Below, in pieces: positions 41,557 through 55,237 of a DNA stretch of 64,000 nt. Made by a program: the position numbers and the translations under genes. This DNA is from Clostridioides difficile ATCC 9689 = DSM 1296. Its GTDB lineage: Bacteria; Bacillota; Clostridia; Peptostreptococcales; Peptostreptococcaceae. The stretch lies in the NCBI RefSeq assembly GCF_001077535.1, contig NZ_CP011968.1, forward strand, positions 2,108,001-2,172,000, given 5' to 3'. The number at the start of each line of letters is the position of its first letter. Position 1 is the first letter of the stretch. Under the pieces are notes generated by a model that worked only from the letters and a program-made list of their open reading frames with translations, was not told the DNA's origin and searched no databases.

Positions 41557-41569
41557 ATTTTTATCTTAA

Positions 41570-41652
41570 CTGGTCTCCCTACACTGGCATTATCCAAACA
41601 GGTTCAAAGGGTCGAGATAAAATCTCCTCTCAGCACATTAGCTCCCCGAAAT
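41570..41652 (-). ncRNA. TPP riboswitch (THI element)
   Basis: The minus strand reads CGGGGAGCTAATGTGCTGAGAG, ACCCTTTGAACCTG and GATAATGCCAGTGTAGGGA in order, which are the conserved core elements of the THI box. It precedes a transcription terminator and the four-gene thiamine uptake operon. The mechanism is expected to be off in the presence of TPP. Confidence 0.96.
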
Positions 41653-41673
41653 ATATTATATCTTTTCTACTTG

Positions 41674-42233: not shown

Positions 42234-42262
42234 TTGAAAAAAGAAACGTTTTCCTATATTAT
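42234..42262 (+). promoter_or_regulatory. Promoter before the first c-di-GMP riboswitch
   Basis: TTGAAA (42234-42239) and TATTAT (42257-42262) are 17 bases apart, and the aptamer begins about 22 bases downstream. The copy at 53822 has the same spacing. Confidence 0.75.
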
Positions 42263-42283
42263 GGTAATAGTAGAATAAAACTA

Positions 42284-42372
42284 AATAGGCAAAACTAGAG
42301 AAATTTAGTGACGCAAAGCTATAGGGACTAAGACTTATGAAATGAGTTATGTCAGCCAGTTGCCAAAGAGAT
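42284..42372 (+). ncRNA. c-di-GMP-I (GEMM-I) riboswitch, copy A
   Basis: The core contains GGCAAAAC, a GAAA-capped stem, the invariant GACGCAAAGC, GGGACTAAG, and a closing GTCAGCCAGTTGCC that pairs with the 5' GGCAA. A weak hairpin (AAAGA...TCTTT) and a TTTTTAT stretch follow, and could be the expression platform. The next gene is the 58-residue protein at 42420. Confidence 0.93.
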
Positions 42373-42419
42373 ATTTTCTTTTTGTTTTTATGAATGTTTT
42401 TTAGGGGGATATATGATAT

Positions 42420-42596
42420 ATGTTTATGGATAAAATGGATAGATGTACACATATACTAACTGCATATATATGCAGTTCACGCGATTACTGCAATTTTATA
42501 GATACACAATTAAATGATTTTATACTAGAATATGGAGAGAATGTGGTAGAATCTTGTTTGCATCAAGTGATGGTATTGGTAAGCAGATATAATTAA
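42420..42596 (+). CDS. 58-residue protein downstream of a c-di-GMP riboswitch, copy A
   Basis: I do not recognise this family. The product opens MFMDKMDRCTHILTAY and ends LHQVMVLVSRYN. It is predicted helical, without a signal peptide or membrane segment, and has Cys at 9, 18, 24 and 46. It shares 49 of 58 residues with the protein at 54018. Most codon differences between the two are synonymous (for example GTG/GTA, GAA/GAG, TTG/TTA, CAT/CAC), so the protein is under selection. AGGGGGAT lies about 11 bases before the ATG. A second in-frame ATG at 42426 is possible. Expression should depend on c-di-GMP. Confidence 0.8.
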   Translation: MFMDKMDRCTHILTAYICSSRDYCNFIDTQLNDFILEYGENVVESCLHQVMVLVSRYN

Positions 42597-42710
42597 AGAA
42601 ATTTTATTTTCTAGAAAACCCTTTTTAGTTTTATCTACGTTTTATAATTCATTAAAGAACTAATTAAAATAAGCTTCATTATATATTTTTCATGAAGTAA
42701 ACAGTTGAGT

Positions 42711-50759: not shown

Positions 50760-51045
50760 TCCGTCCTAAACTAATAGGACGGAGATTATCCGCGTTGCCA
50801 CCTAAATTATATAAAAATTAATATAAAATTCAATTTTCATACATCTCATTATCAGGTACTTACATACCTTATTCGCTATAACGTGCGACTGACGATAAAG
50901 TCTACTCTCAAAACTATGATTTCAATTTATTCCTCTAAGGGCCATTCATCAAATTTTTTCTTGCTAAGATTCCACCATCCTCAGCTCTCTATACTGAACC
51001 TAAATTTAACTACTCTTCCTTGTCATAGGATTTAATTTATTGTAT
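50760..51045 (-). ncRNA. T-box leader, tryptophan specifier
   Basis: The minus strand shows the T-box core AGGTGGCAACGCGG followed by a terminator hairpin (CTCCGTCCTA/TAGGACGGAG) and TTTTTT. Upstream, stem I is recognisable, with AAGGAAGAGTAG on the 5' side and GATGAATGGCCTTAG on the 3' side. The specifier loop reads GAA-TGG-C, so the codon is UGG for Trp. This matches the downstream trpP gene. Confidence 0.93.
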
Positions 51046-52792: not shown

Positions 52793-52879
52793 TTTGGCAA
52801 CTGGCTGACATGACCTTTATTACATAAAGATTTTAGTCCCTATAGTTTTGCGTCATTAGATTTATCTAATATTGCCTAT
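52793..52879 (-). ncRNA. c-di-GMP-I (GEMM-I) riboswitch, copy C
   Basis: The minus strand reads GGCAATATTAG, a small stem, TGACGCAAAACTATAGGGACTAA and then GTCAGCCAGTTGCC. It is close to copies A and B but has GCAAAAC where they have GCAAAGC. An AAAAAGA/TCTTTTT hairpin follows. It precedes the SH3b protein gene. Confidence 0.9.
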
Positions 52880-53203
52880 ATCTGAATAATAACATAATTT
52901 GAACAATTAAAAAATAATATTACCTCAAATTTTATATTATTTAAATATAAATTAAATTTTTAATTAATAATAATCAAAAAATATCTTTATATTTATTCAA
53001 TTACTGTTCTTTATAGTCAATATAAAAGACAGTAATTTATCTATAGTGTTACTTATATTTTATATATATGGCTATTTTTCAACATTTTACAATATATATA
53101 ACATTTATTTTTTTAACTTTTGTCAGTAAAATGTCAGCAAAACACTTTATCCACAATTTTTATATAAGTTTTCCACAACTTATCACCAATATTATCCACA
53201 TAA

Positions 53204-53821: not shown

Positions 53822-53850
53822 TTGAATAATAACTAATTCTATTGTATTAT
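53822..53850 (+). promoter_or_regulatory. Promoter before the c-di-GMP riboswitch copy B
   Basis: TTGAAT (53822-53827) and TATTAT (53845-53850), 17 bases apart, the same layout as at 42234. Confidence 0.75.
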
Positions 53851-53874
53851 TTTAGTTGTAGAATAAAACTAAAT

Positions 53875-53967
53875 CGGCAAAACTAGAGAAATTTAGTGAC
53901 GCAAAGCTATAGGGACTAAGACTTATATAAATATCTTATGAGTTATGTCAGCCAGTTGCCAAAGAGA
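53875..53967 (+). ncRNA. c-di-GMP-I (GEMM-I) riboswitch, copy B
   Basis: Nearly the same as copy A, with GGCAAAAC, the GAAA-capped stem, GACGCAAAGC, GGGACTAAG, a longer variable stem, and GTCAGCCAGTTGCC. An AAAGA/TCTTT hairpin and TTTTTAT follow. The 58-residue protein gene begins about 50 bases later. Confidence 0.93.
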
Positions 53968-54017
53968 TAGTGTTCTTTTTGTTTTTATGAAAGTTTTTTA
54001 GGGGGATAATAATTTAT

Positions 54018-54194
54018 ATGTTTGGAAATAAAATGGATAAATGTACACATGTATTGACTGCTTATATTAGCAGTTCGTATGATTATTGTAATTTTTTAGA
54101 TACACAGTTAGATGATTTTATATTAGAGTACGGAGAAAATGTAGTAGAGTCTTGTTTACACCAAGTAATGGTATTGGTAAGTAAGTATAATTAG
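54018..54194 (+). CDS. 58-residue protein downstream of a c-di-GMP riboswitch, copy B
   Basis: A paralogue of the protein at 42420 (49 of 58 residues identical). The product opens MFGNKMDKCTHVLTAY and ends LHQVMVLVSKYN, with Cys at 9, 24 and 46 in both copies. AGGGGGAT lies about 10 bases before the ATG. Promoter, riboswitch, leader and a post-stop segment (CTAGAAAACCCTTTTTAG) are all kept between the two loci, so the whole unit was duplicated. No known domain is recognised. The protein is predicted to be a small helical bundle or part of a complex. Confidence 0.8.
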   Translation: MFGNKMDKCTHVLTAYISSSYDYCNFLDTQLDDFILEYGENVVESCLHQVMVLVSKYN

Positions 54195-54325
54195 ATAGAC
54201 ATTGATTTCTAGAAAACCCTTTTTAGTTTTATCTACATTTATATTAATATATAGCAATGTAAAACGTTTAAATATATTTTTAATATTAAGAATAATTAAA
54301 ATGTTAACTAAAAAATATAATTAAG

Positions 54326-54966: not shown

Positions 54967-55237
54967 TTTTAATGTAATAAAAATTTTACATACCACATAG
55001 TTGATATAAAACCCAAAATAAACTTAGCATCTCCAATGTTTACACATATACAATGCTCTTAAAATTGCAGTGAACGCGCAATAGTGCAATTGATAATACT
55101 TATCATATATTCTCAATACCTTATATTTCAACTGCTAAACCTCAATTTATCACAAATATCGCTCACTGCAAAATTTCTATATTTTTATTATATCATAGCA
55201 TATAATTAATATTTTCAATTAATTTTTACATTTAATT
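54967..55237. other. Gap with a split inverted repeat
   Basis: TTGCAGTGA (55065-55073) is repeated inverted at 55163-55171, 89 bases apart. No gene is visible. It lies between two decayed genes and could be a remnant of a mobile element end. Confidence 0.4.

What the first reader, a model, noticed from the sequence alone, without database searches (positions are those of the whole stretch)
42234..42596. A 58-residue protein family with a dedicated promoter and c-di-GMP-I riboswitch, copy A
A sigma-A-type promoter, a complete c-di-GMP-I aptamer and a small gene form one compact unit. The protein matches no family I know. The second copy at 53822-54194 preserves all parts. The two proteins share 49 of 58 residues while many codons differ silently, which means selection on the protein. 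A second messenger controls a tiny soluble protein with conserved cysteines, which could be a regulator or adaptor in the switch between motile and sessile states. The gene is short enough to be missed by annotation.
Basis: partly seen in the sequence, partly recalled or inferred. Interest (0 to 1): 0.78.

Follow-up and report, generated by a model that had tools for sequence, protein, structure and literature searches.

The report
c-di-GMP-switched gene for small protein
This is a real, conserved gene for a 58-residue protein that the signalling molecule c-di-GMP turns down; it belongs to a protein family seen here only in Clostridioides, one member of which was reported to lower sporulation when overproduced, and the two ends of its message are predicted to pair with each other.

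Summary
Window 42234-42638 holds a sigma-A-type promoter, a c-di-GMP-I aptamer (79.3 bits), a terminator-like stem, a ribosome site and a 58-codon ORF. Copy B (53822-54236) repeats it; 49 of 58 residues agree. The unit is not new: it maps to Cdi1_6/RCd5 (CD1981.2 in a 2024 review), copy B to Cdi1_8/CD1990.3. RCd5 was published as a 398-nt stationary-phase sRNA, and a 2018 study detected no coding sequence there. I find a gene under strong purifying selection (pN/pS 0.057), open in 8 of 8 Clostridioides genomes.

The added value is the family. The riboswitch copies, CD16671 (reported to lower sporulation when overproduced) and a gene matching the RgaR target CD15111 are one protein family. One branch carries c-di-GMP riboswitches, the other RgaR-type promoter boxes. 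CD16671 lies inside the riboswitch branch; its aptamer has decayed and the RgaR-driven antisense RNA SpoZ covers it. The first ~33 nt of riboswitch-branch messages are complementary to their 3' end, and CD16671 keeps both ends, which suggests a closed (panhandle) mRNA; no compensatory changes prove it. Protein function is inferred, and the published sporulation effects are small.

The parts
42234..42262 (+). sigma-A-type promoter of copy A, TTGAAA-17-TATTAT
   Evidence: sequence; same motif and spacing published for RCd5
42269..42269 (+). start site of RCd5 mapped from 630 coordinate 2285913 by the aptamer anchor
   Evidence: mapping is mine, from two papers' coordinates
42270..42302 (+). 5' arm, complementary to the 3' arm; overlaps the 5' strand of the aptamer
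42278..42367 (+). c-di-GMP-I aptamer (RF01051), Cdi1_6
   Evidence: 79.3 bits
42364..42389 (+). terminator-like stem CAAAGAGA/UCUUUUUG with UUUUU
   Evidence: fold of the leader
42403..42409 (+). ribosome site AGGGGGA
   Evidence: sequence
42420..42596 (+). 58-aa ORF, fits CD1981.2
   Evidence: pooled pN/pS 0.057 over 7 orthologous sequences
42607..42638 (+). 3' arm
53822..53850 (+). promoter of copy B, TTGAAT-17-TATTAT
   Evidence: sequence
53858..53890 (+). 5' arm of copy B
53866..53963 (+). c-di-GMP-I aptamer of copy B, Cdi1_8
   Evidence: 74.7 bits
53960..53986 (+). terminator-like stem of copy B with U run
54018..54194 (+). 58-aa ORF of copy B, CD1990.3
   Evidence: same length (177 bases) and spacing as CD630_19903
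54206..54236 (+). 3' arm of copy B

Best explanation
Copy A is a c-di-GMP-OFF expression unit for a 58-residue, three-helix protein. Shown here: the ORF is conserved as protein across the genus; it belongs to a family held under two signal systems, c-di-GMP riboswitches in one branch and RgaR-type boxes in the other; CD16671 is a riboswitch-branch member whose aptamer decayed and which is covered by the RgaR-driven antisense RNA SpoZ. From print plus mapping: the 398-nt 'sRNA' RCd5 starts at about 42269 and spans the whole ORF, so it can serve as its mRNA; c-di-GMP lowers this riboswitch region and its paralogues. Inferred: bound c-di-GMP favours the terminator stem; the protein acts as CD16671 is reported to, damping sporulation-specific expression when it accumulates, probably by binding another protein, so that low c-di-GMP and stationary phase raise the dose. 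Inferred: the two message ends pair into a panhandle that takes part of the aptamer's 5' strand, so a finished mRNA is locked ON and end-protected.
For: Aptamer 79.3 bits. A orthologues open in 8 of 8 genomes, pooled pN/pS 0.057. CD16671: 58 aa, antisense to SpoZ; about 10-fold overexpression lowered sporulation ~1.8-fold and sigE/sigG ~1.6-fold; 81% identical to CD19903 = copy B (section 10 read); our copy at 1827858 is 81% identical to B and has the SpoZ box on its antisense side in 8 of 8 species. RgaR-type box with 0-1 mismatches upstream of 10 of 12 units of the 1638983 type. Tree of 72 genes: CD16671 inside the riboswitch branch, 95/96. RCd5: TTGAAA-17-TATTAT, 398 nt, 199-fold in stationary phase. 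Arms: 39 of 39 arm pairs -16.8 to -25.0 kcal/mol; arms 97.8% and 86.8% alike between riboswitch and CD16671 groups while the aptamer core is 58.5%; 3' arm worth 16.7-21.1 kcal/mol in 6 of 6 own transcripts folded. Model pLDDT 90, three helices.
Against: Deleting CD16671 did not change sporulation and the overexpression effect is small; knockdown of CD15111 did not change sporulation. c-di-GMP itself inhibits early sporulation (statement in PMC10602386), while it turns these genes down, so they cannot be its route to that effect. The 2018 study saw very few reads at Cdi-1-6 and no downstream transcript. Arms: 0 of 24 pairs changed on both sides, and shuffled columns score as well; in 2 of 39 arm pairs the best of 200 shuffles was lower than the real duplex (L054, L111). 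Box-branch genes have no arms. No partner, no activity and no usable fold match.
Confidence: 0.5

Rival explanations
1. RCd5 acts mainly as a regulatory RNA. The c-di-GMP-terminated leader, which carries the 5' arm, accumulates on Hfq and pairs in trans with the 3' arms of paralogous messages, CD16671 included; the ORF is secondary.
For: RCd5 is reported as Hfq-associated and raised in mice (passages); every own 5' arm pairs with every own 3' arm at -19.9 to -25.9 kcal/mol (6 by 6); the 2018 paper proposed functions other than cis control.
Against: The ORF is under strong selection; RCd5 is listed as 398 nt, the full unit, not the short leader; cis pairing should win over trans; I found no RCd5 mention in the main text of the RIL-seq paper (its datasets were not read).
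Confidence: 0.15
2. The paired ends are not a panhandle: the 5' end is kept for transcription start and riboswitch folding, the 3' element for a local terminator-like hairpin, and their complementarity has no function.
For: The 3' element can fold alone (last 45 nt -3.6 to -5.9 kcal/mol); no compensatory changes.
Against: That hairpin is weak, and the published RCd5 3' end maps ~29 nt further on. In full transcripts the arm is worth 16.7-21.1 kcal/mol. Both arms persist where the aptamer has decayed, including the terminal TCTAC, which the local hairpin leaves out in 6 of 8 folds shown.
Confidence: 0.3
3. The unit is a small mobile element and the arms are its terminal inverted repeats.
For: 8 intact and 3 broken copies in one genome; imperfect inverted repeats at both ends.
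Against: Homology runs 32-807 nt upstream of the 5' arm in 30 of 36 pairs of own copies, so the arm is not an end there; in the other 6 (5 of them with A) it starts within 13 nt of the arm or inside the leader, so A alone does not exclude it. No target duplications or empty sites were looked for.
Confidence: 0.05
4. The protein works in something other than sporulation (for instance stationary-phase physiology or host colonisation) and the CD16671 effect comes from overproduction.
For: Deletion of CD16671 and knockdown of CD15111 left sporulation unchanged; RCd5, Cdi1_11 and SpoZ are raised in mice.
Against: CD16671 levels follow sporulation in the four strains of the paper's Table 2; other copies may mask a single deletion.
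Confidence: 0.4

Closest known systems
Cdi1_8, Cdi1_9, Cdi1_10, Cdi1_11 riboswitches with CD1990.3, CD2309, CD1424, CD3368.2 (PMC3649979, PMC6200980)
   Same: Same unit; copy B is one of them; published as 88-93% alike, OFF switches with premature termination
   Different: Cdi1_6 (copy A) was not in that list of four and was said to lack a coding sequence; protein family, arms and links to CD15111 were not described in the passages I read
CD16671 / SpoZ locus (PMC10602386)
   Same: 58-aa homologue, 81% to copy B; same arms
   Different: No detectable aptamer; antisense SpoZ under RgaR control instead of c-di-GMP
CD15111, RgaR target (PMC10602386)
   Same: Copy at 1638983: small ORF with RgaR-type box beside a DUF2935 gene, about 54% identical to B
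   Different: No riboswitch and no arms; identity with CD15111 rests on box, place and size
hok-type mRNAs with 5'-3' fold-back (recalled, from no call)
   Same: Message ends pair and could control stability and access
   Different: Here the 5' partner overlaps a riboswitch aptamer, and no toxin role is indicated

Membership tests
c-di-GMP-I riboswitch (RF01051) | Aptamer over the curated score | tested here: met
   79.3 and 74.7 bits against 35
c-di-GMP-I riboswitch (RF01051) | Ligand-dependent expression | not testable with these tools
   Published: Cdi-1-6 region -6.41-fold, copy B gene -7.78-fold; [quoted passage not shown]
CD16671 protein family | Homologous 58-aa protein | tested here: met
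   A 76% and B 81% identical to the CD16671 copy; one tree branch, 100/99
CD16671 protein family | Antisense SpoZ-type RNA with RgaR box | tested here: not met
   No box pair within 330 nt upstream or 450 nt downstream (antisense) of A or B at up to 4 mismatches; found for 8 of 8 CD16671 orthologues
CD16671 protein family | Lowers sporulation when it accumulates | not testable with these tools
   Published for CD16671 only
Spo0E-like (PF09388) | Sequence profile match with the conserved S and R | tested here: not met
   hhalign probability 0.8%, 9 columns; the genome's only match to PF09388 is elsewhere, 3663995
Mobile element with terminal inverted repeats | Repeated unit ends at the inverted repeats | tested here: not met
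   30 of 36 copy pairs share 32-807 nt upstream of the 5' arm; 6 do not
Type I toxin-antitoxin | Small hydrophobic toxin with antisense antitoxin RNA | not tested
   No membrane predictor was run; the model is helical with many charged residues

The most novel reading that the evidence does not exclude
C. difficile runs one small-protein family as a dosage integrator of two signal systems: c-di-GMP sets most copies by riboswitch, RgaSR sets the others by promoter or antisense RNA. The riboswitch-branch messages close on themselves by a 5'-3' panhandle that takes apart the aptamer, so a finished mRNA is latched ON; and the c-di-GMP-terminated leaders can open the panhandle of any paralogue, CD16671 included, making a riboswitch fragment a trans-acting regulator of a sporulation-linked protein.
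Probability: 0.15. Interest if true: 0.85.

Novelty: new variant of a known kind. Interest (0 to 1): 0.6.

Why it matters
An RNA published as non-coding that rises about 200-fold in stationary phase (RCd5) contains a conserved, selected gene, so data on it as an sRNA need re-reading. Seven of 11 c-di-GMP-I riboswitches in this genome serve, or once served, one protein family, and the same family holds CD16671 and the gene matching CD15111. That joins two regulons, c-di-GMP and RgaSR, at one protein and gives a concrete candidate for a link between them. The complementary message ends, kept where the aptamer is lost, make a testable case of an mRNA panhandle that competes with its own riboswitch.

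Tried and rejected
Family searches: Pfam and NCBIfam gave no relative; weak hits (Usg in 6 of 23 members, best E 0.079; NSP15_C in 3 of 23; phrog_2625 in 6 of 23, best E 0.0078) I take as noise. PDB by sequence: one chain at E 0.71. Tblastn in phage records: no match; plasmid records: one Clostridioides plasmid. Outside the genus: 0 of 63 other genomes of the taxonomic family; in a sample of 297 genomes of the order only the 8 Clostridioides. PHROG phrog_9888 and 23 IMG/VR loci suggested a phage gene; in the two contigs that I read (L039, L042) the gene lies near BlaI-like repressor genes, near one end of the contig in L039, so I read it as host flank; the other 21 were not read for context.

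Rows dropped: one weak place (1507619, E 0.075) is not counted; the place at 2523398 fills two rows. One search used 48 units (39 distinct arm pairs) after requiring an open frame and both arms within set mismatches; one search used 40 of them, aligned. The structure counted was drawn from these sequences, so its slid control is lenient. The dN/dS set for A holds 7 sequences for 8 species, because G005's unit equals G001's in the compared core; sets for the other types hold 6 (own paralogues), 8, 8 and 6 sequences.

Full report
WHAT IS THERE. Copy A (window 42234-42638, + strand) is, in order: promoter TTGAAA-17-TATTAT; a start site at about 42269; a c-di-GMP-I aptamer at 42278-42367 (79.3 bits, cut-off 35); a CAAAGAGA/UCUUUUUG stem with UUUUU at 42364-42389; AGGGGGA; a 58-codon ORF at 42420-42596; and a conserved 3' element ending at 42638. 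Copy B (53822-54236) repeats these parts. The proteins agree at 49 of 58 residues, with about 20.7 of 31.0 synonymous and 11.3 of 143.0 non-synonymous sites changed.

WHAT IT IS CALLED. In PMC6200980 (passages) Cdi-1-6 lies at (+)2285923, Cdi-1-1 at (-)2296134 and Cdi-1-8 at (+)2297492 with gene CD630_19903 at 2297643-2297819. The spacing 11569 compares with 11588 between the two aptamers here, and the third window aptamer (52793-52886, minus strand) stands before an SH3_3-domain protein, as CD1990 does in the review table of PMC11477304 (table passage). So A is Cdi1_6 and B is Cdi1_8/CD1990.3. PMC3649979 Table 3 (passage) gives RCd5 a 5' end at 2285913, promoter 'TATTAT 17 bp TTGAAA', 3' end 2286311, 398 nt, 'GEMM RNA motif', 199-fold more in stationary phase, and 7-fold less in a sigH mutant. 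By the aptamer anchor this is window 42269 to about 42667, so the whole ORF and the 3' element lie inside RCd5. [quoted passage not shown] The 2024 review lists CD1981.2, small hypothetical protein, which fits A. PMC11651100 (passages) lists Cdi1_6/RCd5 (log2 2.855), Cdi1_11 (2.952) and n00620, which PMC10602386 names SpoZ (2.135), as raised in mouse infection, and RCd5 and n00620 as Hfq-associated.

THE FAMILY. The genome has 11 c-di-GMP-I aptamers and 8 intact plus 3 broken family copies. Seven of the 11 aptamers precede family copies: A, B and those at 3755270, 2526584, 1542869, 317115 (frame broken) and 2765102 (cut after about 29 residues by a CRISPR array). Eight of 8 Clostridioides genomes have the family, 8-12 matching places each at E 0.01, broken ones included; 0 of 63 other genomes of the taxonomic family do; in a sample of 297 genomes of the order only those 8. 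A's counterpart is open in 8 of 8; in 5 of the 8 the same contig shows an opposite-strand aptamer of 67.9-69.1 bits, like Cdi1_1, 10-16 kb away; for the other three I rely on the tree. Pooled pN/pS: A orthologues 0.057, own paralogues 0.154, 1827858 type 0.091, 1638983 type 0.110, 2610909 type 0.081.

LINK TO SPORULATION AND RgaSR. PMC10602386 (section 10 read whole; other passages) describes CD16671, a 58-aa ORF antisense to the sRNA SpoZ, which RgaR activates. About 10-fold overexpression lowered sporulation about 1.8-fold and sigE/sigG about 1.6-fold; deletion had no effect; CD19903 (copy B) is called its ortholog, 81% identical, likely similar in function but under other control. The copy at 1827858 is 81% identical to B, and its antisense side carries CTAGTTATACG/CCAGTTATGCA 21 nt apart, the period of the published -51/-72 residues; I take it as CD16671. 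Such a box (1-3 mismatches) stands there in 8 of 8 species. The copy at 1638983 has CCAGTTTTGCG/CCAGTTTTACA 21 nt apart upstream; 10 of 12 units of this type have a pair with 0-1 mismatches, 2 do not, and a plasmid copy in Clostridioides sp. ES-S-0173-01 has a perfect pair. It lies beside a DUF2935 protein; the papers place CD15111 beside cotB with a VirR-like site upstream; that cotB is a DUF2935 protein is recalled. It is very likely CD15111. Chance: no pair with 3 or fewer mismatches in 64 kb on both strands; genome-wide 6 pairs with 2 or fewer, among them these two. Knockdown of CD15111 did not change sporulation, and c-di-GMP, which turns the riboswitch copies down, is itself said to inhibit early sporulation; both speak against a simple reading. 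For CD15111, CD16671 or SpoZ the library returned 44 papers, 15 listed; in the listed rows only PMC10602386 held CD15111 or CD16671, and in what I read of it CD16671 is joined with CD19903 only. I did not see the wider family in print (searches); most subscription papers are not in that library.

HOW THE CONTROL MOVED. A tree of 72 distinct intact genes (midpoint root) puts the 1638983 and 2610909 types on one side and the riboswitch type with CD16671 on the other (100/99). CD16671 lies inside the riboswitch branch (95/96). Its leader still aligns with the riboswitch leaders, but Rfam finds no aptamer in the 8 CD16671-type loci at E up to 1. So a riboswitch gene has passed to antisense control by the other signal system.

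THE MESSAGE ENDS. The first ~33 nt of riboswitch-branch messages are complementary to their 3' element. In 39 of 39 distinct arm pairs (units chosen for having arms) the duplex is -16.8 to -25.0 kcal/mol, z -3.5 to -7.6 against shuffled 3' arms; in 2 of the 39 the lowest of 200 shuffles was below the real value. In the 6 own transcripts folded, the 3' arm is worth 16.7-21.1 kcal/mol and the first 17 nt pair with it with mean probability 0.81-0.87. On the 40-unit alignment 98.0% of 957 cells are standard pairs, against 45.5-60.2% when slid, but 0 of 24 pairs changed on both sides. Between the riboswitch and CD16671 groups identity is 97.8% in columns 1-18, 86.8% in the 3' arm, 58.5% in the aptamer core and 29.6% in the stretch between stop codon and 3' arm. 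At up to 2 mismatches the 3' arm occurs in the genome only at 7 family genes; the 5' arm at 8 family units plus one other site, 652057, with 2 mismatches. The paired stretch includes nucleotides of the aptamer's 5' strand, so panhandle and folded aptamer should exclude each other; this is inference.

THE PROTEIN. AlphaFold2 on copy B with 22 relatives: pLDDT 90, helices 2-16, 20-38 (broken at 30) and 40-57. Foldseek and VIA-align gave nothing usable. It is not Spo0E-like by sequence. I take it to act by binding a partner; no activity is shown.

VERDICT. Observation confirmed. The unit itself is known piecewise; what I add is the reading of RCd5 as carrying a selected gene, the joining of three separately studied sets into one family under two signal systems, and the conserved message ends. 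Function remains inferred.

Noticed in passing
window 54985-55197: Downstream of copy B lies one degenerate CRISPR-repeat-like stretch followed by sequence 82% alike to the far end of the CRISPR array region at genome 2765 kb: a likely array remnant.
   Followed up: partly
L020 1153-1405 (genome 2765102 onward): A family copy with intact aptamer (published orphan between CD2517 and CD2517.1, by place) is cut after about 29 residues by a CRISPR array. This would explain the orphan riboswitch.
   Followed up: partly
L075 (G007:C1:3612793-3613768): In another Clostridioides species a riboswitch unit is followed after about 250 nt by a CRISPR array with the same repeat.
   Followed up: no
L021 740-771 (genome 2610739): The 2610909-type gene has a weak RgaR-box-like pair, 21 nt apart, in 8 of 8 orthologues (3-4 mismatches): a possible further RgaR target.
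   Followed up: partly
L127 and L137: Two broken units in two genomes run, after about 30 residues, into alike sequence (YRFCFLENLF / YRFCFLENFF), as if truncated at one place.
   Followed up: no
L209 6001-6183: A family member sits on a 136-kb Clostridioides plasmid among hypothetical and cell-wall-binding protein genes, with a perfect RgaR-type box pair.
   Followed up: partly
genome 317115-317438: A further copy keeps a full aptamer (74.1 bits) and both arms but has a broken frame.
   Followed up: no
window 41559-41658 and 50772-51035: A TPP riboswitch and a T-box leader, both on the minus strand; ordinary.
   Followed up: no
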